In this document: one piece after another, positions 12,666-48,018 of the stretch
Layout of the letters: every line of letters starts with the position of its first letter
Numbering within the stretch: the stretch's first letter is position 1
Source: Yponomeuta sedellus
Taxonomy: Eukaryota; Arthropoda; Insecta; Lepidoptera; Yponomeutidae
Direction: 5' to 3'
Assembly: GCA_934045075.1 (NCBI GenBank)
Contig: OW203727.1
Coordinates: 21,930,311-21,994,310, forward strand
Length of the DNA: 64,000 bases
Notes under the pieces: model-generated
What the model was told of the DNA's origin: nothing
What the model saw: only the letters and a program-made list of their open reading frames with translations
The model's database searches: none
Translations under genes and position numbers: made by a program

Positions 12666-12710
12666 GAGCTAAAATAAAACAGTTTTTTTTAACTCTATAC
12701 ATCGAGATAA

Positions 12711-13480
12711 ATTTCAAAAATTCAAAAGTTCCCTTGGATAGAATATATTACGGATAAGCAGTAAGTGGCTTAAAATATATTTTTTTTACTTATAATTTAT
12801 TTTTAAAAGCGCAATTTAATAACACGTCGCATTGATAAAACTACTATGTTAATGAAGTCAATAACACTATGAAGCCGTGACACCGGGTTATCAGTAAACA
12901 ATAAGTGGCCAAAATTTCCAAATAAAGTGATGGATATTTATCGACGTAAAGCAAATATTTATTCTCTTAAATGTCACTTAAGTTGCCTCTTTATTGTATT
13001 CTTGTGCGAAAACACTACGCAATTGATTCTACAAGATTTTGTTTCAAATATAAACTATTTATAATTATTTACAACTAGCTGGCCCAGCGACGAAGTTCAA
13101 TTTCAAAAATTCAAAAGTTCCCTTGGATAGAATATATTACGGATAAGCAGTAAGTGGCTTAAAATATATTTTTTTTACTTATAATTTATTTTTAAAAGCG
13201 CAATTTAATAACACGTCGCATTGATAAAACTACTATGTTAATGAAGTCAATAACACTATGAAGCCGTGACACCGGGTTATCAGTAAACAATAAGTGGCCA
13301 AAATTTCCAAATAAAGTGATGGATATTTATCGACGTAAAGCAAATATTTATTCTCTTAAATGTCACTTAAGTTGCCTCTTTATTGTATTTTTGTGCGAAA
13401 ACACTACGCAATTGATTCTACAAGATTTTGTTTCAAATATAAACTATTTATAATTATTTACAACTAGCTGGCCCAGCGAA
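12711..13480 (+). repeat. 389-bp tandem duplication
   Basis: Position 12711 onward repeats at 13100 onward with almost no change (one C/T difference seen, near 13020 versus 13390). The first copy ends with the first bases of Tail-A ('ctagctggcccagcga') and is joined to 'cgaagttc'. The second continues into a full Tail-A. The near identity means it is young. Confidence 0.92.
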
Positions 13481-19268: not shown

Positions 19269-19301
19269 ATGAGTCAGTGTAATGTTTTTTTGTTATTCTC
19301 G
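19269..19301 (+). CDS. Exon 1: start of signal peptide
   Basis: ATG at 19269 opens MSQCNVFLLFS and stops at a strong donor 'ctcg|gtaagttc' (GT at 19302), leaving phase 0. A hydrophobic core starts at V6. Joined to exon 2 the core continues with IFLLIS, giving a classical signal sequence. The exon is only 33 coding bases long, as is common for signal-peptide exons. Without the partner exons it could not be called; phase compatibility is the main support. Confidence 0.6.
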
Positions 19302-22300
19302 GTAAGTTCAGTGCTAATTATTTATTTATGTATTAATCTATAGTATAAAAATGAATCGCTGAATGTGTTGGTAAGCGCAAATCTCGAGAGCAGCTGAACC
19401 GATTTCGCTAATTCTTTTTTTGAATATTCCTTGAAGTACGAGGATGGTTCTTACGGAGAGAAAAAAATAATAATAAAGCATCGACTGTTAAGCGGTATGA
19501 AGTTCGCTGGGTCAGCTAGTAATATAGCTCAGAGAATCAGCAAGCTGAAGTGGCAGTGGGCTGGCCATATCTCACGAAGAACCGACAACCGTTGGAGTAA
19601 ACGTGTTCTTGAGTGGAGACCGCGACTCGGCAAACGTAATGTAGGACGCCCTCCGACCAGGTGGGATGACGATCTGCGAAAAACTACCGGCAGATGCTGG
19701 ATGCGGCAAGCTGAAGACAGAGCGCTATTATTAGGGGAGGGCTATGTCCAGCAGTGAACTACCTAATATAGCCTGAAGAAGAAGAAGAGCGGCGGTAGCC
19801 CGAACAATGGACTGTGAAGCGAGAGACCCAGTTGGTGGCTTTGTTTTCTAAGTTATATACAATTGTGAATTTATAGCAGTAATACCACTCGCTAACCGTG
19901 AAGGAAAACACCCTGAGGAAACCTGAGTATCTGAGGTGTTCAAGTACGTCAGCGCTTGAAATTGAAAATCCGCGGTGGGTCATTAAGCTCAAACTATCTC
20001 TCTCTCTGAGATAAAGTCTATGCCCTGTAGTGGGACGTTAGACTACACAGAAAAACAAGAATCATTTACAATTATATTTATTTATAACTTGCTGACCCAG
20101 CTAACTTCGTACCGCCTAACAGTTGATTCTTTATTTATTTTTTATTTTTCGCTCCGTAAGAACCATCTTCGTACTTCAAGGAATATTCTAAAAAAAGAAT
20201 TAGCAAAATAGGTTCAGCTGCTCTCGAGATTTGCGCTTACCAACACATTCGGGGATTCATTTTTATATTATAGATAGAAGATAATTTATCGTGAAATGCG
20301 GGGAACTAAGCATTGCATAAGCATTTTTTACCAGTCAACTCAAGTAAGTATGATATTGAAATGTCAAGTAAAATATATAACGAATATTAGAGGACATACA
20401 ACTGATTATAAATCTGTTCAGAGACGAACAACCGACGATGCGAACTCGATATAGTTTTGCGGATCAGAGCGAAACCTGGTTGGACGCTTCCGACAAAAAA
20501 TTAAGTAACTAAATCTGGAATTCAGTTGATAATAGGATTTCGTCGAAGTCGAATCAAAGCTTTGTATGGCTCGACTGCTTTGCCACGGATCTCTTCCTGC
20601 ATCGCAGAAAGGTTAGGCCATACTCCACCACGGGGGCCAAGTCCGGGTTGGTGGAGTATTGCAACTCAGTGGCGGGCCTTAGAGTCAAAAGTTCTCAAGC
20701 CGCTCATAAGGAGGATTTAAGTTTAATTTATTTAGGGCATGTAGTAAAAAATACCTATAAACGTATAAACGTCCTTCGCAGCACAGCCCTTCTCTTAGAA
20801 AGACTCTGTTAGGTTAAGTAATTTTCCTTTTTCGTTACAAAAACGCAGGAAAAGGAATGTTAGAAAAAAATGTGAGACTATTTATATGAAAAAAGTACAA
20901 TTGTTGTTTTGACATTGTATTTCTTTTTCGTGCTGCTCTTAAATGTTGTTTAAATGCTAACAAGACTATTGACCTCCAAACATGCCGTATCTCACACAGA
21001 GAAAAGTGTTCTTTGCGAATGAGAAATTCTTCAAGGAAAGAAGTCAAGGGGGAAGGTCCAAAAGAAAGACAAAAAGTACCCGAAACCGCCGTGCGCGCAT
21101 GCAACGACGAATGAATGTTTATGAAGCGAAAAATGTCTGTCAGACTCGTGGCAAGTAAAGTAAAATAAAAATGTTTATTTCTCACCATAAAGAGCGACAT
21201 ACAGTCGGGGTATTATAAGCCTTGAGGGCTTTACAAAATAACTTCAAGGATTCTTCTTCTTCTTCAGGCTATATTAGTCCACTGCTGGACATAGCCCTCC
21301 CCTAATGAGCTAAGGTTGTGCCATCATTAGGAGGTAATGCCCATAATCCCCACGCTGGGCATGCGGGTTGGGGATCGCAGTTTGGTAGAATTCACTGCAG
21401 GGGGCGCTGCTGCCCACCGTCCGGTTTGAGTCCCTTAGTCGCCTTTTACGACGCCCGCGAGAAGAATTTGAGTTGGTGCTATTCTCTAGACCGACACCAT
21501 ACAGCAAAGGCCACTTACCACTACACTTAAAGGCAATGGTACAATTATCAATTCAACTAATTGCCAAACTATACGTAGTTCTGTATTTTGGCAAAGTGGC
21601 AAACCCTCCTTTCTACTTGCCTCTACGTTAACTTAATTTTATTACTTAAAGGAGACGGATACACTTTCATACATTCTTGGGCCTGGGTGTAAAAAGGTGA
21701 AAGAGATGTCAATTTAGAGCTTATATATTAGCAAAGCATCTCGGAAAATTCTGCGGATTTTGGCAATCTGAGAGCAGAGTTATAAGAGATTTAGTAAAGG
21801 TGAGGCTATGCAACAAGCTGACAATGAAACTTATACTAAACTTATTCTTGTCCGTACAAGTTACGCAAGATGGTAAGTCTGTTGAAAGAAAGCACTGGTC
21901 GGAGAATTATAATAACAAAAACAACAGAAAACACACTCAAAACGCATTAGACGATACGCGAAGACGCTCTATTATTCTCAGAGAAGACGAGTGATCATAG
22001 ATTGAGTCAGGGAGCTGTCACGCCTGTCACTGCACAGACCAAGGATGTTTTTCTTGGCACAGACACAGATTTAAAATACATTTGACAAACACGGGTAATA
22101 AATCGATCCATTCCAGATTGTAAATTGAGCTCATTTTTTATATTTTAAAATAGAAGATTACAACGCTTTTTTTAAACCATATCTCAACTATTTACAATCG
22201 GGCCCAGAAATTTCGTCTCCTTTTAATCTCTATGTGGAGTTCCCTCATTATCATTAAGTGTTGGTTAATGTATATGTTAAAAACCTATTTAGAGGCTAAA

Positions 22301-25300
22301 TATTCCACCCATGCCGAAATTCGAACCCGCGACCTCTGGCTATCCGTGCCAGAAATAGGTTTTTAAAATTGTTCTTAGCACGGGTTAGTGCATTACGATT
22401 TTTATCTTTATGAAATTACTTATTACTTGTCACAACACACTACCACACACTTCACACTAATATTATAAAGGCGAAAGTTTGTGAGTGTGTATGTTCGTTA
22501 CTTCTTTACTTCTAAACGGCTGGAGCGATCTTACTAAAATTGGGTATGGAGTTGGCTGATACCCTGGATGAAAACATAGAATACGTTTTACTCCGGGAAA
22601 ATATTTTATTCCCTAGTAAACCGCGGGTAATACTGAATCGCTCGTAGCCCCGACTGCGTGAGTGATCTTAAACGATCACAAAGGGTAAGCAACATAGGGC
22701 GCGTCAATAGATGGCAGTCGTTAAGCCAAGTTAGAAGCTTTGGGGCGGCTTGGAAACATCTGACAGTAAGACCAGCCACTAGCAAGCCTCCACCAATCCG
22801 GTATTGGCCCCCGTGGTGGAGTATGATCTATACCTTCCCCAGGGAAGAGACCTGTACCCCTCGGTGGGGACAAGATGGGTTGACGATGATTCCCGCAGGG
22901 TACAGCAGGTTATTTATAAAGTAGGAGCCATGTGAAAAATCAAACATGTGACGAGCTCTGTGATAATTAAAATACATTCTTTTTCGATTCGGATTTGGAT
23001 CGTAGCAAGTGGCGGTTCCTCGTCTTTGCCTACCCCTCTGGGGGAGCGGTGGTAGCGGAGCGGTGTAGAACGCCGGCTTCTCAATCGCCAGGTCGTGGGT
23101 TCGAACCCCGGCATGTACCAATGACTTTGTTTACAATGACAATACTACTCGCTGACGGTGAAGGAAAACATCGTAAGGGAACCCTAGTGTCTGAGGTGTT
23201 AGCGTAGCTCAGCGCTTGCTACGTACAATGGCCCAACTATGAGGCTAAGTGCGGAATTCTTAGGTCTAACTAAGTAACTATCCCTCTGGGGTACAGGCGT
23301 GTATGGACAGCGTTATGTTATGTTGTGTTTCTTTTTCGGCACTTTGCGCGATTAGTAATTTCCTCGAAATTTATTTTGTTGCAGATTTTCCTGCTCATCT
23401 CCCGGCCACACAGGTTGTTATGTGAAAGAACTACAACAGAAGGCAAGTCATACATTATTGAATTATTATGTTTTAACATTAAATCAGCGTCGGGATAAAA
23501 GTCCATAAATAAATCACTTATTTATGGTCGCACGTATGGCAGTGGGCTGGCCATATCTCGCGAAGAACCGACAACCGTTGGAGTAAGCGTGTTCTTGAGT
23601 GGAGACCGTGACTCGGCCAACGAAGTGTAGGACGCCCTCCGACTAGGTGGGATGACGATCTGCGAAAAACTGCAGGCAGATGCTGGATGCGGCAAGCTGA
23701 AGAATGGGCGCTATGGCGCTCATTAGGGGAGGGCTATGTCCAGCAGTGAACTACATAGCCTGAAGAAGAAGAAGTATAAAGGCCCCCACTCAGGAGCGTA
23801 TTTATAGGTCGATAATAGTTATTTCATTAGCATTTGGTAAAAAGGGATAGAGAACACATTCTTTTACAGTTAATAAACCGGTGCTAACTAGCGCCACAAA
23901 TAGAATTAAAATCATAACAAGTTTTTTCATACGTTTGTTGTTTTTAAAAATGTATATAATAAGTCTAAAGGCCTGCGCAGACGAGGGGCTTTTGTCCCCA
24001 AGGGACAAAAGTCCCTGAAACGTAAAAAAATGTCCTCCGAGTACTTGTCGCGGACTCACCGCCTACGGTGTGCGGTCATTTGTTCCTCGGAAATTGACTG
24101 AAGCGTACGCTACGGCAGCAAATATTCTGAGATTACATTGTGTTGTAATTTACATAAAGTTGAAAAAGAAAAGGCGTTTTAAAAGAAAACACCGAACTTT
24201 TGTCCAGTCCGGTCTCTTCATGTCCTCGGTAACTTGAGGGACTTTTTGTACGGGGTACTTTTAGTCCTTCGGGTGCGTTATTCGACACAATCCATAAGAG
24301 ATCTATATCGACGGACAAAAAAGTACCCGGGGAATAGTCCCTCGTCTGCGCAGGCCTTTAACAACCTTGACAACTACTTTTAGAACCGACTTGCAATGTC
24401 GAACCTGGAATCGACAACCGACAAATCGATTTCCGCTAAAAACGGCCGTTTTTAGCAAAACTGCTTTAAAGTCAAGATTCTTGCACCTAGGTTCTTTTTA
24501 GCAGGTTCTAAAAATAGCTGCTATATTTATAAAGATTTGTGATGTTTACTTTTTGCAACAACGCGTTATAAAAGAAGATATTATTGCTTTCCTTTGATGG
24601 CGCTAATCGACACCGGATAGGGGCTTAATAGCGTTATTTTGATAAAGCGTCTTCGCTTCATTGCACACAACTGCGATTTCTATTTCGTATCCGTGCTTTT
24701 GACCGGGTTTTTCCTAATCTCTGTAGGTACTCCTATCGTAATTAGATTCGGTTTAAATGTATTCACATTGGGTTAGTGCATTAAAAAGAATATAATCATG
24801 TGGGTACAGCGATATCATTCCGATGTAAAACCTAACTGCAAAGTTAGCACTCGGGGTTGAAAGTGATGCAAATTACTTCAGCCAGATGTCGCTGCCTGTA
24901 AGTAATACAGAGAGTAATCTAAAGTGAGTCGCCTGTTAGCTCAGTTGGAAGAGCGCTGGCACGGATAGCCAGAGGTCGCGGGTTCGAATCCTGGCATGGG
25001 CAAAGGAACTTTTAGCCTTTAAATAGGTTTCTAAAATTGTCCTTAGCACGGGTTAGCGCATTAAAAAGAATAGAATTATTCACATTGGGTTTTGGCGTCT
25101 CTTCTATAGCAACTGTTAGTGATAACAAAAACATCTGATGATAAATCTATATCCATATTATAGATTTTTGGAAAACTCGTATCTGTCTGTAAAACCAAAT
25201 TTCGTCCTTTATTTACTGAAGTTCTCGCAGCTGTGCGCTGGATTCCATATACATCCCAATACAGATGTTCTGAGAAATTATGTGGGAATATCGCAGCACG

Positions 25301-28300
25301 GAGAAACGCAAGCGTCCCAATAATTAGGAATTACTCTACTGCATCGTTGTTATCGCAGTAGCGTGTAACTTTACAGTGTACTAAAAATAAATATCACAAT
25401 AACACATCCGGTATTATTGACCGATAATAACATGCCTATGAGTAAGAGCCTTTGGCGTTTTAGCGTTGCACTATCGCTGCCTAAAATATACATCTCTATA
25501 ATATAAAAATGAATCGCTGAATGTGTTGGTAAGCGCAAATCTCGAGAGCAGCTGAACCGATTTCGCTAATTCTTTTTTTAGAATATTCCTTGAAGTACGA
25601 GAATGATTATTACGGAGAAAAATAAATTAAAGAGTCGACTTTTAGGCGGTACGAAGTTTGCTGGGTCAGCTAGTCTATAATATAAAAATTAATCGCTGAA
25701 TGTGTTGGTAAGCGCAAATCTCAAGAGCAGCTGAACCGATTTCGCTTATTCTTTTTTTGAAATATTCATTGAAGTACGAGAATGGTTTTTACAAAGGGAA
25801 AAAAATTAAGAATCGACTGCTAGGCTCTACGAAAATCGGGTTAGCTAGTTTTAAAAAAATATTATTAAAATGGTTGTATTTATTATTAATATTCAAAACA
25901 CAACCAGCTTTAAGCTGATGCGTGTATATCACTATCGTGCTCTTGCCACTACTAAAATTACTATGGCCCAATTTAGGGCCAGTTTCTGAATTGAGCATGT
26001 CACTAAGTAGGTAAACCAATATTATATTTTTTTTATGCACTAACCCGTGCTAAGGACAATTTAAAAAAAACTGTACGTAAAACAGAGAGTATTTTAAAGA
26101 AGTTCGTAATTTCACTGATGCTGGTGTGTCACCCATTAGCTCAGTTGGGAGAGCGCTGGCACGGCTAGCCAGAGGTAGCGGGTTCGAGTCCCGGCATGGG
26201 TGGAATTTTTAGCCTCTACATTAGTTTTTAAAAAAGGTATCCAAATTTCTCAGCAAAGAGTGTGATAAAACATTACTTAAGTAACGTTACTTAGTGAAAT
26301 TCCCAATTCAGAAACCGGCCCATAACCTCACTGTATTTTTGGTTGATCCTTAATATTAAATAATCAGAGAAGCACAATTCATGGTAGGTATCAATCCTTG
26401 TGTGACCCCACTGCTGGGGCACGGGTCTCCTGCATCGCAGGAAGGTTAGGTCATACTCCACCACGGGGGCCATGTCCGGGTTAGTGGAGGTTTGTAAGAC
26501 AGTGGCGGGCCTTACTGTCAGGAGTTATCAAGCCGCTCATTAGGCTTCTGATATGCCCTAACGACTGCCATTACATGACAACTGGCACCAACGGCTTAGC
26601 GTGCCTTGCGAAGCATGGAAGCGCTCGGAAAAAATGTCACTAGGACGGACACGCATCATGCGCCTATTGTTGCTTAACTCAAGTGATTGAATCCAATCAC
26701 TCGGTTCGACTAAGCCACGAGCGAGCATGGTGCAAAGACCAATAAATAAAGACCTTAGATAAATATAAACACATAAGTAATTTAAGATATTTGACTCTAT
26801 GTTGTACAATTGTACAACGCTAAAATACAATCTATAATATATTTTTTAATTATATTGGATCTATAAAATAATAAATTATTGTATAGAATCAGGCGTTACT
26901 TTGCGGAAATCCATAATAGCATTAAAAAGTTAAAATTACTTTGCTGAATTCCGCCAAAAATCCATTCGACTTGCATTTGGGAGCCTGAGGATGCCTCGTG
27001 TTAGAGGCGAAACGCGTCGCGTGTTTTCTCACACAAGTATTGGTGTTGGTGGTGGTGTGTTCGTGTCTTGCTTCTGCTTGAAAAAGTGGGAGGGAGGGCG
27101 GTGCATTAGCTAACCGCATGGTGCTTGTGGGATTTTTGGCGGAATTCAGCAAAGTAATTTTAACTTTTTAATAATAAATTATTTTTAAAAACCTACTCCG
27201 ACCCGGCCGGGGATCGAACCCGAGACCTTCGGTTTTACAGTCAGCGTGCCAAACCGCTGCGCCATCGAGGCCGTCCAGGATAATGATCCACGAATTCTAG
27301 ATTTACGAAACCCGGCCCTGATTACCTCATGGAGAGTGTTTTTTTTTCTTCTGCAGATTACGCGAGTTGGAAAAAAACGATAAATAATCCGTAAGTATGA
27401 CAATTATTTGGAAGGAAGGATTTCCTTCCTGTGGATACATCACATTGCGAGGAAACCTGCGCTTGAATGGCTCCGCACGTATTGACTTGTCTTTCCTGGT
27501 GGCTAGGCCGACTACGCTATCACGATGGTATAGGTTTTGGTCAAGCTTACTCCATCTAATAAACTATGTCACAAGCACTACAGCGCCCAAATGGTCCCTT
27601 GCCCATACGGGCTAGATAGTGTGAATGAAGGTCGCTGTATATATCATCAGTATTTCGTAGTTTTACGTCGTTCCGTAGTTCATTATTATTACGTAGTTTT
27701 ATAAAGTAGTGTGTGAAATGAAGATGGAAAGCATACCTATATTATTTTTGTTTATTTATTTACACTTAAATATATGAATGTAGGCTTTATTTTTATATTT
27801 AACTTCCTAGTTTAGTTTCTTAGTATATAAGGGGCCTCGCTGAAAATCAGCGCTTTTTGAATGTTGTGTTCAGAGGCACAACGCACAATTTATAGATTCA
27901 CATTTATCCTAGCCCAAACTGGCATACCCAGTGCAATGTTTACAAGCCAAGGACATCCCAGAAATGGAAATACTCTTTTTCAACATTTTTTTTTATTTAT
28001 GCTTGGTTAATGTTATCTCGATTAAAAATTGAAAACGCCTTAACAAAAACATGGAACAAAACAATCGTATACATGAACAAGCCTTTGTCCCACGACTTCC
28101 GTATTGTGGGTTAAAATGTTTCTATGTTGTATAGAATCAGGCGTTACTTTGTGCAAATCCATTATCGCATTAAAATGAGAAAATAACTTTGCTAAATTCC
28201 GCCAAAAATCCCAGAAGCGCCACCACCGACACAAGTATTGGTGTCGGTGGTGGTGTTCATGTCTTGCTTCTGCTTCAAAAAGTGGGAATGAGATCGGCTG

Positions 28301-31300
28301 ATTTTAGCAAAGTAATTTTCACATTTTGTATTTCCGCAAAGTAACGCCTGATTCCATACAACATAGAAACATTCCAATGCACAATACGTAAGTTATGAAA
28401 CAAAGGCTTGTTATGTATCAGATTGTTTTGTTCCATGTTTTCGTTTAGGCGTTTTCTATTTTTAATCGCGATAACATTAACGATGTCTGCCAAAAAAAAT
28501 AAAAAAAACAATGTTGAAAAAGAGTATCAATTTCCATTTTTGGGATGTCCTTTGTTCTAGGGTTGCAAGTGATGCAAATTACTTCAGCCAGATGTTGCTG
28601 CCTGTACGTAATACAGAGAGTATTGCAAAGAGGTTTGAAATCACACTAATGGCGGTGGTCGCCGATTAGCCCTGTTGGGAGAGCGCTGGCACGGTTAGCT
28701 AGAGGTCGCGGGTTCGAGCCCCGGCATGGGTGGAGCCTCTAAATATGATATTAATGCTATTTTTTTATTTGTAACACGGTTCAATTTTACTTTCGACTGT
28801 GACCCTTAGAACTCCGTCGACGACGGTGGCTGTGCCGAAACCGACTACGATACCAGTGACAACTCCGACAACTACAACGACGACACCTAACGAGCGGAAC
28901 AGCGAAAAAAGTATCGTAAACACAACATTAGAATCGTAAGTAAAGTCTTCCGTCACAGATACACATAACAGATTAGTATCCCGCCAATTCATGTGGACTT
29001 TTTAAATTTTAAATATGGAACTCACCCCGCAATAAGCTGCGGCTTATTGCGCTCAAAGAAGTTTGTGCTAAATTCACACTGGCTGTTAGGCACATGGCCG
29101 CAGCATTTTTTTAAATTAGTTTTTTGCAATATAATGCAAATACACACACACACACACACAAATACATACGCACACATCTAAGTACACCTGAATGAGTTAT
29201 CTGTTGATTTTTTAATCGTTATTTTTTATATAATTATTTTAACCAAATTACAATTGTAATCTAAAACTGAGAGAGGGCACTGATCTTGAACATAGATGTT
29301 TTACCTAGCTCAAAGATCAGGGACTTCACTACATCACTTGTACAATTTCAAGTGAATAAATCATTCAATTACGTTAAGCCCTTACGTTACGTGCACCAAA
29401 TCCTGAACCATCCCTGTCTATCTGTCAAATTCCATACTTATTGCGATTGCTGAACGGCAGGACTCTGAGAGGATTTGGCGCGTATAATTGGGCCTCAGTT
29501 CCAAATTTTTTTCTTTAAATCATCAGCGGGTTCCCGACGCAAAACTATTCTGCCACAACGGAAAGTAACAGACGAGAGATATTGAAGCACAGAAACGAAA
29601 CAACAACACAATCACCACTATCGTAAGTAAACCTTCACTAAAAACAGGGAGCTAATTCTCGAAGCGCTCGTAGCCTAGTCGAACCGAGTGATTGGAATCA
29701 ACCACTTAAGTTAAGCAACAACAGTCGCGGTCAAGGTGACCGTGCCGTGACTACCGCTAGTGGCATTTTCCGAGCGTTTCCGTGCTTCGCAGGGCACGAT
29801 AAGCCGTGGGTGCCAGCTGTCATGTAATGGCAGCGTTAAGCCATGTCAGAGGCCTAATGGGCGGCTTTATAACTTCTGACAGTAAGGCACGCCACTGTCT
29901 TACAATCTTCCACCAACCCGGACTTGGGCCCCCGGGTGGAGTATGTTATTAGCAGATGACGTTTTACAAAAAAACACCTTATTACGAAATAAGTTTTTTT
30001 TATCCAGCCTATATAACTATACGTCCTACTCCACCTTCGTTGAGAAAAAGAGTATATGGGACTAAGGACCGCGCCAGCCATTGACAATTTCAAGCGTTGA
30101 AGCAATTGAGCACCTCAGATACCCAAATTTCCCCGTGATGGTTGTCTTCGCGATAGAGAGTATTTATTGTGAATGGGTACAATTATCAAAATTGCACAGA
30201 GAGCAATGGAAAGAGCTGTGCTAGGAATCACACTTCTGGACCGGATCCCGAATGTCGAAATCAGACGCCGAACAAAGGTGGTAGACATCGGCAAACAGGT
30301 TTCGACTCTGAAGTGGAAGTGGGCGGGTCACTTGGCCAGGCGGAATGATGGCAGATGGACGAAGGCAGTGACAGTGGCGGCCGTGGGAGGGAGAACGGTC
30401 GGTGGGCAGACCAGCAGCCAGATGGTCAGATGACCTATGTAAAGCAGCCGGCAAACAGTGGATGAGACTAGCGCGAGACCGTGCTGGTTGGCGTGGAAAT
30501 GAAGAGGCCTATACCCAGCAGTGGGGTTTACCGGGCTGATGATGATGGCTATGCAGTGAGTGGAATCTTAGAATTCGCAGTTAGTGAGGGTTATTACTAT
30601 GATATTTTTATTGGGGTCGCTGGCTAGATCAGAGCAGCCCCCCCCCCTTCCCTTCTTCCCCTTCTTCCTCATGCAGATCACTGTCTTCACCACAATATAT
30701 GATTTTATTTGTTTATAGGGACAACAGCTCATGTGGAGTGGGCTGTATCCTGGGTATATTTTTTGGACTAGCACTCCTGGCGATAGTTGGCGTAGCAGTG
30801 TTCTACCACTACTATCAGTCCGGGACATATCGTAAGTATGACTTCGTATACTTTTTAGTGAGAATACTAAAAACTTTATAGCTTTAGGATAGAACCCCTA
30901 AGGCTTTTTAGAGACAACCTGAAACTTGCGCCAAACTTGCGTATTGTAACCTTGCAAATGACGACCTATGTGGCACAGCGGTGGCGCATCTGCCTGCCTA
31001 CCATGCGAGAGGTCCCGGGTTCGATCCCCGGGTGGGGACAAAAAAACCTCAGGTCTTGGATGTTTAAATGTCGCTGTTTCTGGTACCCACGACACAGGGT
31101 ATCCTAGTGTGGGTCCAGAAGCTATGTATGTGCCGGTATGTAAATGTAAATGTTGTGTTATTGTTACCACTGATATAAATTAATAAATACTAAATAAAAA
31201 AAATATTATAAATAAAAATAAGAAAAATACAGCTTTACTAAATAAATATCTTTACCTTTAAACTTACTTTGAAGTGGCATTGCTTTTGTACAATAAAAGA

Positions 31301-34300
31301 CAGGAAAATCGAAAATATTTAGAGACGTTATCAACCCTTGTATGTCCCCACTGCTGGGGCACGGGTCTCTTCCTGCATCGCAGGAAGGTTAGGCCATACT
31401 CCACCACGGGGGCCAAGTCCGGGTTGGTGGAGGATTGTAAGACAGTGGCGGGCCTTACTGGCAGAAGTTATCAAGCCGCCCATAAGGCCTCTGACATGGC
31501 TTAACGACTGCCATTATATGACAGCCGGCACCAACGGCTTAACGTGCCTTGCGAAGCACGGAAGCGCTCGGAAAAATGCCACTAGCGGTAGTCACGGGAC
31601 GCTCACCCATCCTGTACCTGACCGCGCCTGTTTTTGCTTAACTCAACCGAGCAGAGTGATTGATTCCAATCACTTGATTGTTTTTTTTTTTCTTTTTGTT
31701 GTTGCTTAACCAAGGGATTGATTCCAATCACTCGGTTCGCCTGGGCCCATGACTACCGCTAGTGGCATTTAGAGACACAAATATATATTTTTCTGGCTTT
31801 TCGGGCTCCAAAAAACGATGTGGCTTAAAATTATTAGGGCTTTGCTCAGTCACATTAACAAATAAATAATAAACAAAATGCTGTTTAAGTCTACGTGCCT
31901 TAAACTCATTCCGGTTCCGCGGGGTTGTATTCAAGTTATCTGCCGTGTGCTGTACCAAAAAGTGTTTGGAAAAATTCACATTTTATAGTATTTTCTAAGG
32001 TTAACACGAGCAGTAGACATAATTAAAACTGTTTTTACATGGATTTATGCTCGTTTATTACATTTTTACAATTTTCCAAAGTTTCGGCACTTTTTCAGGT
32101 GCCGTGATCCCGGATGACTGAGGTGACGGGAGTGTTTTAGAAAGCATTAAAGGTTAGTTTACTACCCTCGGCAAAAATTACAAAAGTTAATTATGAAGTT
32201 ACGTTCCAAAGTAGGCAAACCAATTATTTTTATATAAAGTCAACAATATTGATTAATAGTAATTGAAGTTAATATTAAATTTATAATTTACATGAACTTA
32301 AAAATACTGATTATTAATTGAAATTAAAGGAGAATGACCAAAAACAGTCTATGTTGCGCTTTAAGCATTTATCCCTCAAAATGTTTCTTTTGAAAAATAA
32401 TTTCATAGTTTTATTTGAAAAAATAAAAGAAGCAGGGGTTTAAAAGTAATAATTAAAAAATATCTGTATTGATTGTATAACCACGTTGACATCCTTGTGT
32501 ATAGCTAAAAAACTTCAGTACAGATTACATTACAAACACAGATTAGATTAAATTATTGCAAAAATCAAAGAGTATTAAACACGGATGTCAAAAAAGACGG
32601 ATGGAACCTTCTATAATCACATGCGCTATCTGCAAAAAGTCGCAGTATGTAAATGCCTAACACGTCCTTTGCTAAAGGCATAAATAATCTGTGGTCATAA
32701 CCTCAAAACATGGGCTCAAAATTAAGATTTTTCGAAACTCCCATCTAATATTTACATACTATTTTTCTTGCATAATCCAGAGCTATTTTTTTATAGTTTA
32801 CCGTTGGTTTCATCAATGCGCAAGAAGGCGCAAAAATAGACTAACTCCTATAATAAATTGATCATTCTCCTTTTTAACTCTACAGTCACACTTCAAGCAA
32901 GGGGTTCTCATGCACTTAAGCACTGGTTCCCATGCTACCGGTATGTTCCAACCACGATCTCTATTAAAATTTGGATGCCAGCGGATATCTATTGCCTCGC
33001 GTATCATTCTAAGGAAGAAACGGTCTTCTCGGGCTAGAACTTTAACTTTATCGAAGTGTATAAAGTGTTCTGCGACAAGGACCATCTATCTGCGGAACTC
33101 CAGCATGTCAAACGAGTGCTTCGTGCAAACAAGCTCCGCCAAAGAGATCCGCCGGCATCCAAATTTTAATAGAGATCGTGGTTGGAACATACCGGTAACA
33201 TGGGAACCAGTGCTTAAGTGCATGAGACCCCCTTGCTTGAAGTGTGACTGTAGAGTTAAAATTTTTAATTTCAATTAATAATCAGTATTTTTAAGTTCAT
33301 GTAAATTATAAATTTAATATTAACTTCAATTACTAATAATCAATATTGTTGACTTTATCAATATTGTTGACTTTATATAAAAATAATTGGTTTGCCGATT
33401 TTGGAAGCTAACTTCATAATTAACTTTTGTAATTTTTGCCGAGTGTAGTAAACTAACCTTTAATGCTTTCTAAAAGACGCCCGTCACCTCAGTCATCCGG
33501 GACCACCTGAAAAAGTGCCGAAACGTTGGGAAATTGTAAAAATGTAATAAACGAGCATAAATCCTTGTAAAAACAGTTTTAATTAATTCACATTTTGTGC
33601 AATAGGCATTCTGCGGCTAAGAGCTATCGCCCACGGCCACTCATTAACGCGATTCGGAAGTCGTAAATGCGATTCGGACCCGTCGTATCGCGTACCGTAC
33701 CGAAAGGGCACGGGCACTTCCGTAGAAATTGAAGCGTATTGAAGCAACACATACATATGCATATGCATATTGCTGTGTGGTGTCGGCCTAGACATCATAA
33801 ATAGCACCAACCCAAATTCTTCCCGCGTGTGTCGTAAAAGGCGACTAAGGGACACAAACTGGGGGGTGGGCAGCAGCGCCTCCTGCAGTACAATTCCACC
33901 AAACTGCGATTCCCAACCCGCAAGCCCAGCGTGAGGATTACGCCCCAATGATGGCACAACCTTGCGCTATTAAGCTCACTAGGGAAGGGCTATATCCAGC
34001 AGTGGACTAATATAGCCTGAAGAAGATAAATATGCATATGCCTTGGTGCATGCAAAACGTTTGCCTTGCTTCTCAAAAGATGTCACATAACGCGTTTAAG
34101 AAGCGTGTATTAAAGTCGTCTTAGGTCCACTTGCGTCAGCCCGGGTTAACTCATTTATCTAACTCGAGTTAGATAAATGAGCCCACGAGTCGCCCATTGG
34201 CTCTATTGGAAGAGCGCTGGCACGGATAGCCAGAGGTTGCGGGTTCGAATCCCGGCATGGGTGAAATTTTAGCCTCTAAATAGGTTTTTAAATTTGTCCT

Positions 34301-35167
34301 TAGCACGGGTTAGTGCATTAAAAATAAATATAGTATAATCGAGTTAACCGGTCAAATCGATTATTTTGTATGCGAAATTATCGATTCGACTGGTTAACTC
34401 GGGCTGACGCAAGTGGGAAGTCGATATAAGAATATATATTTGCTAAAGCATGGCAATTATACATTATGGAGGTGGTAAACAAAATTACATAGAAATTGTG
34501 ACTTATCGAACTTACTAAACCTCTAAACCTCTGGCACGGATAGCCAGAGGTCGCGGGTTCGAATCCCAGCATGGGTGGAATTCTAAGCCTCTAAATAGGT
34601 TACTAAATCTATTTATATCCTCTAAATATATCAGCAACGTTTCATTGCAATCGTATAGATGCCAAGGCGCTTGTAGCCTAGTGGAACCGAGTGATTAGAA
34701 TCAATCACTAAGGTTAAGCAAGAAGAGGCGCGGTCAAGTGCTGGATGGGTGATCATCCCGTGACTACCGCAAGTGACATTTTTCCGAGCGCTTCCGTGCT
34801 ACGCAAGGCACGCTAAGCCGTTGGTACCGGCTTTCATGTAATGGCAGTCGTTAAGCCATGTCAGAGGCCTTATGGGCGGCTTGATAATTTCTAACGCTAC
34901 GACCCGTCACTGTCTTACAAACCTCCACCAACCAGGACTTGGGCCCCGTGGTGGAGTATGGCCTAACTTTCCTGCGATGCGGGACCCGTGCCCCAGCAGC
35001 GGGGGCATACGAGGAGTTTGGTTGTAATTAAAACCATACTACATTTGTATGGGCTTTGCTCCTCGTCTTAATCGTTTCGAATGTGTGTGTGTCAGAAGTG
35101 TAACGTACGTTATTTTACTTCCATTACAGGGGTCCGGAATAAAGAGATCAAAAAGTGTCAAGCCTAA
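19269..35167 (+). CDS. Mucin-like single-pass membrane protein, 165 aa, seven exons (new gene model)
   Basis: Join of 19269-19301, 23385-23442, 27357-27390, 28810-28935, 29527-29622, 30719-30831 and 35130-35167. Each junction has a usable acceptor and donor, and phases agree throughout (0, 1, 2, 2, 2, 1). Predicted order: signal peptide (about 1-24), a Thr/Ser/Pro-rich stalk (about 25-120) with sequons at N79, N90, N107 and N118 and a run of six Thr near 62-67, a transmembrane helix (about 125-145) and a 17-20 residue basic tail ending KKCQA. It should be a type I cell-surface sialomucin-like protein. The family is not recognised, and transcript data would be needed to prove it. Introns are 0.6-4.3 kb and hold repeats. 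One junction uses a GC-AG intron. Confidence 0.65.
19338..19521 (-). mobile_element. Tail-A copy, in intron 1
   Basis: Minus-oriented unit from 'tatagtataaaaatgaatcg' to 'gctgggtcagctagt'. It contains 'ctcgagagcagctgaaccg'. Confidence 0.8.
19522..19795 (+). pseudogene. LINE-G reverse-transcriptase C-terminal fragment
   Basis: About 78 codons end at a stop near 19757 and match the C-terminus of RTE-like endonuclease/reverse-transcriptase proteins: KLKWQWAGHISRRTD, then RPRLGKRNVGRPPTRWDDDL and CWMRQAEDRA. The tail 'gtccagcagtgaactac...gcctgaagaagaag' follows. All catalytic domains are missing. It is a dead 5'-truncated insertion. Confidence 0.85.
19845..20058 (+). mobile_element. SINE-B, 5' truncated
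   Basis: 'gtggctttgttttctaagtt' to 'atgccctgtagtgggacgtt', with body 'gaaggaaaacaccctgagg' and 'ctcagcgctt'-like segments. The head is missing. Confidence 0.75.
20086..20278 (+). mobile_element. Tail-A copy
   Basis: 'cttgctgacccagctaactt' to 'ttttatattatagatagaag'. Confidence 0.8.
20572..20718 (-). mobile_element. 5S-SINE 3' fragment
   Basis: 'cttcctgcatcgcagaaagg', 'caccacgggggccaagtccg' and 'gccgctcataagg' on the minus strand. Confidence 0.8.
20719..21249. other. Unassigned intronic sequence
   Basis: The minus-strand open frame at 20835-21200 (121 codons) has no known motif and no splice logic. Local sequence 'aaatgtttatttctcaccataa' at 21170 resembles a LINE tail. Confidence 0.35.
21250..21508 (-). 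mobile_element. LINE-G short element, complete
   Basis: Minus copy from (GAA)n-end 'cttcttcttcttcaggctat' through 'gcatgcgggttggggatcgc', 'gtcgccttttacgacgcccg' and 'ctctagaccgacaccatac'. This is a short, apparently non-coding element that shares its 3' end with LINE-G. Confidence 0.85.
21824..21872 (+). CDS. Exon 1b candidate: alternative signal-peptide exon
   Basis: ATG at 21824 ('gacaATGa') encodes MKLILNLFLSVQVTQD plus one base, then a strong donor 'gatg|gtaagtct' (GT at 21873), phase 1. This phase fits exon 3, so a transcript starting here could skip exons 1 and 2 and still join the same ectodomain. The hydrophobic core is short. The frame is open further upstream and an out-of-frame ATG lies at 21808, so this may also be an internal exon or chance. 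Confidence 0.3.
22279..22400. mobile_element. SINE-D fold-back composite
   Basis: Minus-oriented 3' half 22279-22353 ('aaaacctatttagaggctaa' to 'ctatccgtgccag') meets a plus-oriented 3' end 22354-22400 ('aaataggtttttaaaattg' to 'gggttagtgcatta'). Confidence 0.8.
22450..22640 (+). repeat. Dispersed repeat ('aatattataaaggcgaaag')
   Basis: 'ctaatattataaaggcgaaa', 'gtttgtgagtgtgtatgttc', 'aacggctggagcgatct', 'accctggatgaaaacataga' and 'taaaccgcgggta'. I recognise it as a common lepidopteran repeat, class uncertain. Confidence 0.55.
22690..22880 (+). mobile_element. 5S-SINE, diverged 3' part
   Basis: 'gatggcagtcgttaagccaa', 'tggcccccgtggtggagtat' and the altered end 'cccctcggtggggacaagat...gggttgacgatgat'. 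The same variant end ('cccctcggtggggacata') occurs at 49660-49800, so this is a subfamily. Confidence 0.75.
22985..23275 (+). mobile_element. SINE-B with tRNA-like head
   Basis: Upstream lead 'gatcgtagcaagtggcggtt', then the tRNA-like head ('tagcggagcgg' as box A, 'gggttcgaaccccgg' as box B), 'caatgactttgtt', 'actcgctgacggtgaaggaa', 'aaccctagtgtctgaggtg' and 'atggcccaactatgaggct'. One of two best full copies. Confidence 0.85.
23385..23442 (+). CDS. Exon 2: end of signal peptide, start of ectodomain
   Basis: Acceptor 'tttattttgttgcag' ends at 23384. The phase-0 reading gives IFLLISRPHRLLCERTTTE plus one base. The donor is 'acagaag|gcaagtc', a GC donor in the strict AG|GCAAGT context seen in real GC-AG introns; a GT alternative ('cacag|gttgtt', 23414) is poor. 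Together with exon 1 it completes the hydrophobic core and a likely cleavage region around LLC-ER (residues 22-25). It leaves phase 1, which exon 3 accepts, forming Asp at the junction. Confidence 0.55.
23538..23778 (+). pseudogene. LINE-G C-terminal fragment
   Basis: 'cagtgggctggccatatctc' (QWAGHIS), then 'ggacgccctccgactaggtg' (GRPPTR-like) and the tail 'gtccagcagtgaactacata' with (GAA)n. Nearly identical to 19522-19795 over this span; 5' truncated. Confidence 0.85.
23966..24360. mobile_element. MITE, 395 bp, about 20-bp terminal inverted repeats
   Basis: Ends 'aaggcctgcgcagacgaggg' (23968-) and its complement (to 24358) are perfect inverted repeats, with flanking 'ta' on both sides. Subterminal 'gggacaaaagtccct' (24001-) and 'ggacaaaaaagtacccgggg' (24313-) also pair loosely. 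There is no transposase inside. The TA flanks suggest a Tc1/mariner- or Harbinger-like origin. Confidence 0.8.
24410..24540 (+). repeat. Dispersed repeat with perfect 22-bp palindrome
   Basis: 'atcgatttccgctaaaaac' and 'gcacctaggttcttttta...gttctaaaaatagctgctat' recur loosely at 43283-43400. A perfect 22-bp palindrome sits at 24435-24456, centred on 'acggccgt'. Confidence 0.5.
24775..25076 (+). mobile_element. SINE-D, full copy with 15-bp TSD
   Basis: TSD 'tattcacattgggtt' at 24760-24774 and 25077-25091. The inserted unit starts with 'agtgcattaaaaagaatata', which is the family's own 3' terminus, then the whole element, and ends with the same '(t/c)gcattaaaaagaat'. The tRNA-like region (24927-25001) has box A 'tagctcagttgg' and box B 'ggttcgaatcc'. 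Confidence 0.9.
25092..25493. other. Unassigned intronic sequence
   Basis: An open frame after 'atattatag' at 25164 and an in-frame 'LCAG' reading at about 25230 briefly suggested a protease exon, but there is no good donor and no catalytic motif. I leave it uncalled. Confidence 0.35.
25494..25672 (-). mobile_element. Tail-A copy
   Basis: 'tataatataaaaatgaatcg' to 'tttgctgggtcagctagt', minus orientation. Confidence 0.85.
25673..25850 (-). mobile_element. Tail-A copy, tandem to the previous
   Basis: Immediately follows the previous unit in the same orientation ('tataatataaaaattaatcg' to 'gggttagctagt'). Head-to-tail doubling of an RTE tail. Confidence 0.85.
25974..26322. mobile_element. MITE with a SINE-D inserted
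   Basis: Left end 'gggccagtttctgaattgag' (25975-) and right end 'caattcagaaaccggccc' (-26321) are imperfect inverted repeats extending about 35 bp to 'cactaagta'. SINE-D fills 26035-26238. Confidence 0.65.
26035..26240. mobile_element. SINE-D, short inverted 3' piece plus full tRNA-like part
   Basis: Minus-oriented 'atgcactaacccgtgctaag' (26035-26066) is followed by a plus-oriented piece from 'gtacgtaaaacagagagtat' to 'agcctctacattagttttta'. Box A 'tagctcagttgg' and box B 'ggttcgagtcc' are intact. Confidence 0.8.
26390..26726 (-). mobile_element. 5S-SINE, near full length
   Basis: 3' end 'cccactgctggggcacggg' at the left. The 5S-like head lies at about 26645-26724, where the minus strand reads 'aagtgattggattcaatcac'-like and 'cttgagttaagcaacaata'. 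The box C block is eroded ('gatgcgtgtccg'). Confidence 0.85.
26888..27171. mobile_element. Foldback MITE, 43-bp perfect inverted repeats
   Basis: The left arm 26920-26962 ('attaaaaagttaaaattact' ... 'gccaaaaatcc') and the right arm 27129-27171 are perfect complements. The outer sequence 'aggcgttactttgcggaaat' (from 26891) occurs only on the left. It shares both arm and interior ('cacaagtattggtgt', 'gtcttgcttctgcttgaaaa') with the longer element at 27950-28553. Confidence 0.85.
27187..27282 (-). mobile_element. tRNA-Tyr-like SINE head or tRNA pseudogene
   Basis: On the minus strand 'gatggcgcagcggtttgg' (box A), 'gactgtaaaac' (anticodon loop reading GTA) and 'ggttcgatccc' (box B). The acceptor stem is not well formed and no CCA or terminator is seen, so a functional tRNA is unlikely. 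Confidence 0.55.
27357..27390 (+). CDS. Exon 3: short ectodomain exon
   Basis: A very strong acceptor, a run of T then 'cttctgcag' (ends 27356), and the donor 'aatcc|gtaagtatg' (GT at 27391) bound a 34-base exon. Only one frame is open: two bases finishing the Asp codon from exon 2, then YASWKKTINN, then two bases of Pro. Phase in is 1 and out is 2. YASW recalls the C-terminal helix of trypsin-like proteases, but no protease exon fits before it. Confidence 0.6.
27440..27665 (+). repeat. Rep-C copy 2
   Basis: 'ggctccgcacgtattgactt', 'taggccgactacgctatcac', 'gcactacagcgcccaaatgg' and the end 'cgtagttttacgtcg' parallel 18390-18632. Confidence 0.6.
27666..27949. other. Unassigned intronic sequence
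   Basis: The phrase 'ctcgctgaaaatcagcgct' at about 27837 is shared with 2773 and suggests a LINE tail; otherwise nothing is seen. Confidence 0.4.
27950..28553. mobile_element. Long foldback element, about 240-bp inverted arms
   Basis: The left arm (about 27951-28195) and right arm (about 28310-28552) are diverged inverted repeats: outer 'aaggacatcccagaaatgga' faces 'tccatttttgggatgtcc', and inner 'gaatcaggcgttactttgt' faces 'ccgcaaagtaacgcctgatt'. The centre holds a small hairpin 'caccaccgacacaagtattg|gtgtcggtggtg'. It has no coding capacity. Confidence 0.8.
28559..28743 (+). mobile_element. SINE-D copy
   Basis: 'gcaagtgatgcaaattactt' to 'gcatgggtggagcctctaaa'. Box A 'tagccctgttgg' is mutated, box B 'ggttcgagccc' is present. 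Confidence 0.85.
28810..28935 (+). CDS. Exon 4: Thr/Pro-rich mucin-like stalk
   Basis: Acceptor 'gactgtgacccttag' (ends 28809) and strong donor 'gaatc|gtaagtaaag' (GT at 28936). The only fully open frame gives Pro (shared with exon 3), then TPSTTVAVPKPTTIPVTTP, six consecutive Thr, and a charged end (NERNSEKSIVNTTLE). About 15 of 41 residues are Thr. NTT at residues 79-81 is a sequon. It is symmetric (phase 2 in and out), so it can be skipped or duplicated without breaking the frame. The antisense reads as a Val-rich frame that is only its shadow. Confidence 0.75.
29146..29161. repeat. Short (CA)n microsatellite
   Basis: Eight CA units with flanking 'aaatacatacgcacaca'. Confidence 0.85.
29390..29495 (+). 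repeat. Rep-M fragment
   Basis: 'ccaaatcctgaaccatcc', 'ctgtcaaattccatactta', 'ttgcgattgctg' and 'actctgagaggattt' echo the degenerate array at 63600-64000. Confidence 0.5.
29527..29622 (+). CDS. Exon 5: second Ser/Thr-rich stalk exon
   Basis: Acceptor 'tttctttaaatcatcag' (ends 29526) and strong donor 'ctatc|gtaagtaaac' (GT at 29623). Phase 2 to 2. It encodes Ser (shared), GFPTQNYSATTESNRREIL, then KHRNETTTQSPL and two bases of Ser. Sequons NYS (residue 90) and NET (107). Same phase, same composition and a closely similar donor ('tcgtaagtaaa') as exon 4, which hints that the two arose by exon duplication. Confidence 0.75.
29658..29947 (+). mobile_element. 5S-SINE, near full length
   Basis: 'gaagcgctcgtagcctagtc', 'aagttaagcaacaacagtcg', a shortened promoter block 'gcggtcaaggtgaccgtgcc', then the body to 'cccccgggtggagtatg'. 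The last 50 bases of the family are missing. Confidence 0.85.
30000..30162 (-). mobile_element. SINE-B fragment, diverged
   Basis: 'gagcacctcagatacccaa', 'caatttcaagcgttga' and 'gtcctactccacc' on the minus strand. Confidence 0.55.
30166..30545 (+). pseudogene. RTE-like LINE, reverse-transcriptase C-terminus
   Basis: Translates (30173-30433) to IAQRAMERAVLGITLLDRIP, EIRRRTKVVDIGKQV and LKWKWAGHLARRNDGRWTK, a textbook C-terminal region of RTE-type endonuclease/reverse transcriptases. A shift near 30390 breaks the frame; the rest ('aaacagtggatgagactagc', 'tacccagcagtggggttta') continues in another frame to a (GAT)n tail. 5' truncated and dead, lying in intron 5. Confidence 0.88.
30719..30831 (+). 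CDS. Exon 6: transmembrane segment
   Basis: Acceptor 'gattttatttgtttatag' (ends 30718) and donor 'atatc|gtaagtatg' (GT at 30832). Phase 2 in, 1 out. It encodes Ser (shared), DNSSCGVGC, then ILGIFFGLALLAIVGVAVF and YHYYQSGTY. The roughly 21-residue hydrophobic stretch with GxxxG-like Gly spacing is a clear membrane helix, flanked outside by the sequon NSS (118) and inside by aromatic residues. C121 and C125 could form a disulfide or be lipidated. This is the most convincing single exon of the gene. Confidence 0.8.
30961..31178 (+). mobile_element. SINE-I copy
   Basis: 'ggcacagcggtggcgcatct', 'gggttcgatccccgggtggg', 'acacagggtatcctagtgtg' and 'gtaaatgtaaatgttgtg'. It contains a duplicated 'tgcc' in the anticodon region. 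Confidence 0.8.
31333..31672 (-). mobile_element. 5S-SINE, full length
   Basis: Well-preserved copy from 'caacccttgtatgtcccc' to the 5S-like head near 31605-31672 (minus strand 'ggtacaggatgggtgagcg' and 'gcaaaaacaggcgcggtc'). The open frames through it are shadows. Confidence 0.9.
31695..31772 (-). mobile_element. 5S-SINE head fragment
   Basis: 'gttgttgcttaaccaaggga', 'ttccaatcactcggttcgcc' and 'gactaccgctagtggcattt' repeat the 5' end, partly scrambled. Confidence 0.7.
32813..33125 (-). pseudogene. PLE-E protein C-terminus, minus copy
   Basis: Minus-strand translation includes VLVAEHFIHFDKVKVLARED, RMIREAIDIRWHPNFNRDRG and NIPVAWEPVL. This VAEH...REAI.I..hpNFNRDrG pattern follows the GIY-YIG endonuclease module in proteins I associate with Penelope-like elements. 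Neither the GIY-YIG core nor the reverse transcriptase is present. Truncated. Confidence 0.65.
33146..33278 (+). pseudogene. PLE-E protein C-terminus, plus copy
   Basis: KEIRRHPNFNRDRGWNIPV and TWEPVLKCM repeat the end of the minus copy, starting further downstream in the protein. It ends in a stop near 33276. Confidence 0.65.
33771..34029 (+). mobile_element. LINE-G short element, full, with TSD
   Basis: 'tgctgtgtggtgtcggccta' to 'atatagcctgaagaagataa'. Flanks 'atatgcatat' (33761-33770) and 'atatgcatat' (34030-34039) are a 10-bp TSD in a (ATGCAT)-rich target. Confidence 0.85.
34128..34417. mobile_element. MITE, interrupted by SINE-D
   Basis: Left end 'ccacttgcgtcagcccgggt' and right end 'actcgggctgacgcaagtgg' are inverted repeats of about 24 bp. 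The interior 'gttaaccggtcaaatcgat' resembles a common lepidopteran MITE family with 'ggttaaccggtta' cores. A perfect 30-bp palindrome occupies 34151-34180, centred on 'actcgagt'. Confidence 0.75.
34181..34338 (+). mobile_element. SINE-D inside the MITE
   Basis: Begins at the tRNA-like region ('gagtcgcccattggctcta') and runs to 'gttagtgcattaaaaataaa'. The flanks 'tcgagtta' (34163-34170 and 34341-34348) may be the TSD. Confidence 0.8.
34528..34602 (+). mobile_element. SINE-D 3' fragment
   Basis: 'ctggcacggatagccagagg' to 'gcctctaaataggtta'. Confidence 0.75.
34665..35020 (+). mobile_element. 5S-SINE, full length
   Basis: 'aggcgcttgtagcctagtgg', 'cactaaggttaagcaagaag', 'gtgctggatgggtgatcatc', body, and end 'gccccagcagcgggggcata'. 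It ends about 110 bases before exon 7. Confidence 0.85.
35130..35167 (+). CDS. Exon 7: cytoplasmic tail and stop
   Basis: Acceptor 'gttattttacttccattacag' (ends 35129). With phase 1 from exon 6, the first two bases finish an Arg codon, then VRNKEIKKCQA and TAA (35165-35167). The basic, Cys-containing 12-residue end is what the positive-inside rule predicts after the helix, and the penultimate region could be lipidated. The other two frames either stop at once or give a Ser/Lys-rich 19-residue end, so this reading depends on the phase. Confidence 0.6.
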
Positions 35168-35336
35168 GACTGCAATTACTTTGTTCTAAAATTAAATTAT
35201 TGCCGTTAAGATACAATGAAGTTTTTCTTACTCAACCCGACCGAATATTGTGTTTATTTGATCGAGCATTGAATGCTCAAACGCACTTACCTAAGGTTAA
35301 ATTCCGGATTGATCTGTCTTCAGAACAACACAAAAT
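35168..35336 (+). other. Presumed 3' untranslated region
   Basis: 'attaaa' at 35191-35196 is the only near poly(A)-signal in the first 100 bases; no AATAAA is seen before the mariner relic. The open frame through 35155-35406 has no recognisable features. Confidence 0.3.
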
Positions 35337-39404: not shown

Positions 39405-39850
39405 TTTTCTAAGGTTAACCCGGGACATAATAAAAAGTTTACTATACTATTTTTATTTTCAATGCACTAACCCGTGCTAAGGACAAATTTAAAAACCTAT
39501 TTAGAGGCTAAAAATTTCACCCATGCCGGGATTCGAACCCGCAACCTCTGGCTATCCGTGCCAGCACTCTACCAATTGAGCCAATGGGCGACTCGCCGGC
39601 ATCAGTGAAATTTCGAACCTCTTTACACTATTCTCTGTATTACGTACAGGCAGCGACATCTGGCTTAAGCAAATTGCATCACTCCGACTACCTACGTTGC
39701 AGTTAGGTTTTACATCGGAACGATATCACTGTACCCACATGATTATACTATTTTTATTTTTAGCTTCTAAATTGGTTTTTAAGAAAGTTTACTGTTTTTA
39801 TACGGATTTTACTCGTTTATTTTAGATTTTTGCAATTTTCTATTTCGGTG
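39405..39850 (-). mobile_element. PLE-E fragment split by SINE-D
   Basis: 'gtattttctaaggttaaccc' (39403-) and, after the SINE, 'gtttttatacggattttact' to 'tttttgcaattttc' (39794-39838). Both are the terminal part of PLE-E. Confidence 0.7.
39444..39783 (-). mobile_element. SINE-D, full length, with TSD
   Basis: Complete element from 3' ('ttcaatgcactaacccgtgc') to 5' ('cactgtacccacatgattat'), followed at its 5' end by a short inverted 3' piece 'gcttctaaattggttttta'. TSD 'aaagtttact' at 39434-39443 and 39784-39793. Confidence 0.9.
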
Positions 39851-41410: not shown

Positions 41411-41648
41411 AAAAACCTATTTAGAGGCTAAAAATTCCACCTATGCCGGGATTCGAACCCGCGACCTCTGGCTATACGTCCCAGCGCTCTTCCAATTGAG
41501 CTAATGAGCGACTCACCGGCATCAGTGAAATTTCGAACCTCTACAATATTCTCTGTATTATGTACAGTCTCTAAAGCCTCTGTTTAGACTCTAAATAGGT
41601 TTTTTTAAATTATCCTTAGCACGGGTTAGTGCATTAAAAAGAATATAA
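41411..41648. mobile_element. SINE-D, minus body then plus 3' end
   Basis: Minus 41411-41567 ('aaaacctatttagaggctaa' to 'attatgtacag') then plus 41575-41648 ('gactctaaataggttttttt' to 'gcattaaaaagaatataaac'). Confidence 0.85.
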
Positions 41649-47814: not shown

Positions 47815-48018
47815 CATAACATTTACATACAGGCACACACATTGCTTGTGGCCCCATACTAGGATACCCTGTGTCGTGAAAACCAGAAACAATGACATCA
47901 CAAACATGTAAACATCCAAAACCTGGAGTTTTTTATAATCCCCAGCCGGGGCTAGAACCCGAAACCTCTTGCATGGCAGGCAGATGCGCTACCGCTGCGC
48001 CACAGAGGCCGTCAATTC
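47815..48018 (-). mobile_element. SINE-I copy
   Basis: 'aacataacatttacatacag', 'ggataccctgtgtcgtg', 'gggctagaacccgaaacctc', 'gcgctaccgctgcgccacag'. Confidence 0.8.

What the first reader, a model, noticed from the sequence alone, without database searches (positions are those of the whole stretch)
19269..35167. Undescribed seven-exon gene for a small mucin-like membrane protein, hidden among repeats
Seven short stretches each lie between a good acceptor and donor. Their phases agree at all six junctions (0, 1, 2, 2, 2, 1), and the joined frame reads signal peptide, Thr/Ser/Pro-rich ectodomain with four sequons, one transmembrane helix and a short basic tail, then stop. Six matching junctions plus this order of domains is very unlikely by chance. 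The exons are 33-126 bases long, so ORF-based gene finding would miss all of them. No family could be named.
Basis: partly seen in the sequence, partly recalled or inferred. Interest (0 to 1): 0.88.

Follow-up and report, generated by a model that had tools for sequence, protein, structure and literature searches.

The report
Possible orphan mucin-like membrane protein gene
Between two known genes on a butterfly-like chromosome there is a plausible but unproven small gene for a sugar-coated, membrane-anchored protein; its middle exons look better than chance, its two ends do not, and no relative was found.

Summary
The seven exons, six phases and 165-aa product are in the sequence as described, with two details left out: intron 2 is GC-AG, and the exon 4 acceptor is weak. 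A spliced-gene model of my own, choosing freely, ranks reader exons 3-7 first in the repeat-masked window, and returns exactly the seven exons once a rival first exon (21824-21872) is hidden. The signal sits in exons 4-6. But random sequence supplies an equally good start in 50.5% of 200 trials and an equally good end in 73.5% of 200, so exons 1, 2 and 7 are unproven. With ordinary amino-acid composition the chain is not above chance, and codon usage is unlike two known neighbours. No relative among 5.8 billion proteins, although neighbour jus found 367; but the closest jus is only 84% identical, so a fast-evolving mucin could be missed. Most likely a taxon-restricted single-pass mucin-like glycoprotein with uncertain ends (0.5); chance assembly is a serious rival (0.33).

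The parts
19269..19301 (+).
   Evidence: Donor TCG|GTAAGT 6.25 nats, rank 14 of 6426 GT/GC; start part no better than random sequence
23385..23442 (+).
   Evidence: Acceptor rank 13 of 3469 AGs, donor AAG|GCAAGT rank 143 of 6426
21824..21872 (+). Rival single first exon (MKLILNLFLSVQVTQ + G), spliced to exon 3 in phase 1
   Evidence: Chosen by the free model in place of exons 1+2: 32.54 against 31.76; also no better than random sequence
27357..27390 (+). Exon 3 (YASWKKTINN)
   Evidence: Acceptor rank 3 of 3469; chain falls from 32.54 to 28.43 without it
28810..28935 (+). Exon 4, Thr/Pro-rich ectodomain (core)
   Evidence: Chain falls to 16.74 without it; 21 of 26 codons with C at position 2, most in the 264 kb searched, next best 20 and 19; single copy in own genome; weak acceptor
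29527..29622 (+). Exon 5, Thr/Ser-rich ectodomain with two sequons (core)
   Evidence: Chain falls to 28.39 without it
30719..30831 (+). Exon 6, last sequon, transmembrane helix and start of the tail (core)
   Evidence: Chain falls to 24.46 without it; hydropathy 2.84
35130..35167 (+). Exon 7, rest of the basic tail and stop TAA; uncertain
   Evidence: Acceptor rank 6 of 3469, but other ends score 32.23 and 32.09 and random sequence does as well
35191..35196 (+). ATTAAA, possible polyadenylation signal 24 nt after the stop
   Evidence: Pattern match only

Best explanation
Exons 4-6 (28810-30831), probably with exon 3, belong to a real, single-copy, taxon-restricted gene for a small single-pass mucin-like glycoprotein. 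A signal peptide (from exons 1+2, from 21824-21872, or both as alternative starts) would send the chain into the ER. The Thr/Ser/Pro-rich ectodomain would be densely O-glycosylated and carry up to four N-glycans, making a stiff hydrated brush; one helix anchors it and a short basic tail faces the cytosol. It would act as a cell-surface shield or anti-adhesive spacer, with selection mainly on composition, so that the sequence drifts beyond recognition. Shown: sites, frame, composition, hydropathy, single copy. Inferred: transcription, splicing, glycosylation, location and function.
For: A free spliced model picks reader exons 3-7 as best in the masked window and exactly the seven exons once the rival first exon is hidden. 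0 of 400 Markov windows reach 31.76 (maximum 20.49 and 17.14). Among 48 masked 30-kb windows the candidate is top; the next locus is 25.57, then jus at 18.69. Reversed sequence reaches 19.9 (48 windows). Exons hold no repeat 15-mers against 25% of the region. Five of six donors and four of six acceptors lie well inside the range read by eye at two known neighbouring genes. Only its own exons match it in its genome at E below 1.
Against: The mucin composition was put into the model after seeing the candidate; with ordinary composition the chain is not above chance (11.3 and 13.8 against null mean 13.4). Synonymous codon score -4.2 over 160 codons, against +38.5 over 199 and +42.3 over 232 for held-out known genes. 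Weak exon 4 acceptor; one GC donor. No relative. With exon 4 kept, 3 of 300 random surroundings match the score; with exons 4+5 kept, 25 of 300. Before masking, six of 48 windows score higher.
Confidence: 0.5

Rival explanations
1. Chance assembly: a Thr-coding low-complexity tract (exon 4) lies in ordinary non-coding DNA, and the free choice among thousands of splice-like sites lets a reader find open pieces in phase on both sides, including a hydrophobic one.
For: Ordinary-composition model shows nothing; ends replaceable by random sequence; 3 of 300 random surroundings of exon 4 and 25 of 300 of exons 4+5 reach the score; codon usage like pseudo-exons; no relatives.
Against: 0 of 400 Markov windows and no reversed window reach the score; the tract has second-position bias with varying first and third positions, unlike a simple repeat; given exon 4, the rest is about a 1% event.
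Confidence: 0.33
2. A real gene with other bounds: exons 4-6 are part of a different or longer transcript whose true first and last exons were not found, so the 165-aa product and its signal peptide are wrong.
For: Twelve starts tried in turn score 32.5 down to 25.4 and many 3' ends lie close together.
Against: Compact chain with stop and ATTAAA close behind; no better upstream start was found back to -57 kb in the masked sequence.
Confidence: 0.12
3. A decayed gene: exons 4-6 are relics of a once functional mucin-like gene, now without codon bias and without working ends.
For: Neutral codon usage; weak exon 4 acceptor.
Against: No stop inside exons 4-6 and intact splice dinucleotides at each junction, one of them GC.
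Confidence: 0.05

Closest known systems
CD164/endolyn and Drosophila visgun (architecture recalled)
   Same: Signal peptide, mucin-like ectodomain, one helix, short tail.
   Different: No CD164-type (MGC-24) match listed in two Pfam scans at E up to 10; no cysteine in the ectodomain residues 26-120.
Endomucin (PF07010)
   Same: Thr/Ser-rich ectodomain with one helix; weak match E 0.06 and 0.11.
   Different: 13.7 and 12.8 bits against a cut-off of 26.6; explained by composition.
Amnionless (PF14828)
   Same: Weak match over the helix and its flanks, E 0.0088 and 0.0075.
   Different: 15.3 and 15.5 bits against a cut-off of 30.4; only profile positions 317-377 of 442; no FxNPxF in the tail (motif recalled). 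The reversed protein also gives a sub-threshold match (DUF6418, E 0.038).
Lepidopteran orphan genes, e.g. lushu of Plutella xylostella (PMC11290247, abstract and outline seen)
   Same: Gene without recognised relatives outside its lineage.
   Different: lushu is demonstrated by knockout and encodes a sperm protein; the candidate has no experimental support.

Membership tests
Single-pass mucin-like membrane glycoprotein (class) | Thr/Ser/Pro-rich ectodomain | tested here: met
   45 of 95 residues in 26-120
Single-pass mucin-like membrane glycoprotein (class) | One transmembrane helix near the C-terminus | tested here: met
   Hydropathy 2.84 over 19 residues from 126; no topology predictor was run
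Single-pass mucin-like membrane glycoprotein (class) | Signal peptide | tested here: inconclusive
   Both N-termini are hydrophobic, but random sequence supplies as good a start in 50.5% of 200 trials
Single-pass mucin-like membrane glycoprotein (class) | O-glycosylation and surface location | not testable with these tools
   Needs expression
Protein-coding gene | Codon usage like known genes of the same genome | tested here: not met
   -4.2 over 160 codons against +38.5/199 and +42.3/232 for held-out neighbours
Protein-coding gene | Relatives in other species | tested here: inconclusive
   None found, but the nearest jus in that database is 84% identical, so near relatives may be absent
Protein-coding gene | Spliced transcripts | not testable with these tools
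   No reads held
Amnionless (PF14828) | Profile match above the curated cut-off | tested here: not met
   15.3 and 15.5 bits against 30.4
Endomucin (PF07010) | Profile match above the curated cut-off | tested here: not met
   13.7 and 12.8 bits against 26.6
CD164/endolyn/visgun | Match to the CD164 (MGC-24) profile | tested here: not met
   Not among matches at E up to 10; HMMER's filters drop most weak matches

The most novel reading that the evidence does not exclude
A taxon-restricted membrane mucin, born de novo or diverged beyond recognition, sits in the roughly 190 kb between jus and an AGMO-like gene, with two alternative signal-peptide starts and exons too short for ORF-based gene finding.
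Probability: 0.4. Interest if true: 0.45.

Novelty: new member of a known kind. Interest (0 to 1): 0.3.

Why it matters
If real, it is one more orphan surface glycoprotein, and an example of short-exon genes that ORF scans miss. It is also a worked case of how far phase agreement can mislead: the ends of the model are no better than random sequence supplies, while the middle is better.

Tried and rejected
Homologue search of the whole protein (174 candidates, none at E<=10) and of residues 108-165 (11 candidates, none). Viral-contig scan: 26 pattern matches, no relative. Solved structures: 6 matches, best E 0.34, taken as chance. Own-genome protein search: four matches are the candidate's own exons 2, 4, 5 and 6; two more at E 1.4 and 3.7 hold stops and are taken as chance. 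Species name through genome size in papers: nothing useful. Literature: no paper holds all four of Lepidoptera, mucin-like, transmembrane, orphan gene; searches gave listings of general CD164, orphan-gene and mucin papers; of these I saw the abstracts and outlines of PMC11837612 and PMC11290247 and nothing more. Rejected: that C before GTAAG in four donors argues against the gene, since by my reading three of ten exon ends of the two neighbours show it too; that the 25.57 chain is a clean null, since it runs through exons of the right-hand gene. AlphaFold was not run: a spliced, disordered protein without an alignment would say little.

Full report
Setting. The window lies at 21,930,311-21,994,310 of contig C6 (25.2 Mb) of a 657.5-Mb, 57-contig genome. 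Starting about 57 kb left of the window, a gene on the minus strand reads signal peptide, EB modules, one membrane helix and tail. Its spliced protein found 367 relatives at E<=1 among 681 candidates (best 120 listed), many named jus or julius seizure; the best is from Epargyreus clarus and the next several are also butterflies (that they are butterflies is recalled). About 68-96 kb right of the window a plus-strand gene has exons, one of which matches fatty acid hydroxylase (PF04116, E 7e-7, 30.1 bits against a cut-off of 31); it reads like alkylglycerol monooxygenase (recalled). Apart from reverse-transcriptase ORFs the candidate is the only other gene-like chain that stood out in the roughly 190 kb between them; 10,000 of the 264,000 bases examined read N.

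Observation. The exons join as stated: lengths 33, 58, 34, 126, 96, 113 and 38, junction phases 0,1,2,2,2,1, 165 aa, stop. Four sequons, one helix, a basic tail and 45 of 95 T/S/P residues are right.

Is it more than chance? I wrote a spliced hidden Markov model (signal peptide, mucin-like ectodomain, helix, tail; splice matrices from recall; composition chosen after seeing the candidate) and let it choose freely. In the unmasked window the best chain holds exons 4-6 but other ends (34.44, next 9.48). With repeats masked the best chain is 21824-21872 plus reader exons 3-7 (32.54). Hiding exons 4-6 leaves 5.83. Nulls: 200 second-order and 200 fourth-order Markov windows reach at most 20.49 and 17.14. 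In 48 overlapping masked 30-kb windows of the real region the next locus is 25.57, a chain partly out of frame through the right-hand gene, then jus at 18.69. Reversed sequence reaches 19.9 (48 windows). Against this: before masking, six of 48 windows scored above the candidate's 34.98, up to 57.65, through retrotransposon ORFs, repeats, a GC-rich stretch or the right-hand gene.

Where the signal sits. Replacing everything upstream of 27300 by random sequence gives at least 31.76 in 50.5% of 200 trials; replacing everything downstream of 30900 gives at least 32.54 in 73.5% of 200. Replacing 30.0-32.0 kb (helix exon) or 28.7-30.0 kb (exons 4 and 5) never gives 32.54 (0 of 200 each). With exon 4 kept, 3 of 300 random surroundings reach 31.76; with exons 4 and 5 kept, 25 of 300. 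So exons 4-6 carry the evidence, and exons 1, 2 and 7 are guesses. Twelve starts tried in turn score from 32.5 down to 25.4, and the twelve best 3' ends from 32.54 to 29.17.

Dependence on assumptions. The claim therefore rests on the Thr/Ser/Pro bias of exons 4-5. In favour of the tract: its best 26 codons have C at the second position in 21, the most of any open frame in the 264 kb (next 20 and 19), while positions 1 and 3 vary (entropies 1.54, 0.85, 1.50 bits). Of seven ACN-rich clusters listed in the region, exon 4 is the only one that is not a microsatellite or CA-rich simple repeat. This suits selection for T/S/P/A better than a simple repeat, but the margin over the next stretches is small.

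Codon usage. Scored against chaperonin exons and the two neighbours (2166 codons), held-out jus gives +38.5 over 199 codons and the right-hand gene +42.3 over 232, while the candidate gives -4.2 over 160 and its core -1.6 over 109. Among 400 pseudo-exons its exons 4, 5 and 6 stand at the 81st, 50th and 85th percentile of the full codon score. GC3 is 0.48 against 0.73. This is what non-coding sequence gives; young or weakly expressed genes can look the same.

Splice sites. By my reading of exon ends at jus and the right-hand gene, donors there score 2.1-7.8 and acceptors 4.4-7.4, and three of ten exon ends have C before GTAAG. The candidate's donors (3.5-6.3) lie inside this range; of its acceptors, exon 4 (2.1) and, barely, exon 5 (4.2) lie below it, and exon 3 (7.8) above.

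Relatives. None in 5.8 billion proteins with the whole protein or the C-terminal part. The jus control shows that many Lepidoptera are in that database, but the closest jus is 84% identical over 166 residues, against 75% over 161 to Bombyx. So the species itself and probably its near relatives are not in it, and a fast-evolving mucin could be missed. In its own genome only its own exons match at E below 1. Pfam gives only sub-threshold matches, and the reversed protein gives some too.

Verdict. A taxon-restricted single-pass mucin-like membrane glycoprotein with its core at 28810-30831 is the best reading (0.5); the stated 165-aa product is only one of several models. A chance assembly around a Thr-coding tract is the main rival (0.33). 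[quoted passage not shown] So even if true this is a new member of a known kind.

Noticed in passing
L004-L006, minus strand (window coordinates about -57.4 kb to at least -72 kb): Neighbouring gene jus (julius seizure): signal peptide, EB modules, one helix, conserved tail; 84% identical to Epargyreus clarus over 166 residues.
   Followed up: yes
L019-L021 region, plus strand (window coordinates about 132.5-159.5 kb): Exons of a fatty acid hydroxylase, probably alkylglycerol monooxygenase (name recalled), one with a PF04116 match just below the cut-off.
   Followed up: partly
L003:7634-9880, L006:6558-7283, L016:4102-6972, minus strand: Reverse transcriptase ORFs (RVT_1); that in L003 also matches endonuclease families, as in LINEs.
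   Followed up: no
32020-33585: Large foldback structure in intron 6: four nested inverted-repeat pairs, arms 82-153 nt, 94-99% complementary.
   Followed up: no
12710-13479: Two tandem copies of a 389-bp unit, 99% matching, so a recent duplication.
   Followed up: no
21-379: GATAC pentanucleotide array, about 72 copies, drifting to GACAC at its end.
   Followed up: no
24931-25002, 26130-26202, 34193-34261 (+); 39520-39588, 41443-41505, 47938-48009, 59640-59708 (-): Seven tRNA-like Rfam matches (30-38 bits), most with similar flanks, so probably tRNA-derived SINEs rather than tRNA genes (SINE reading inferred).
   Followed up: no
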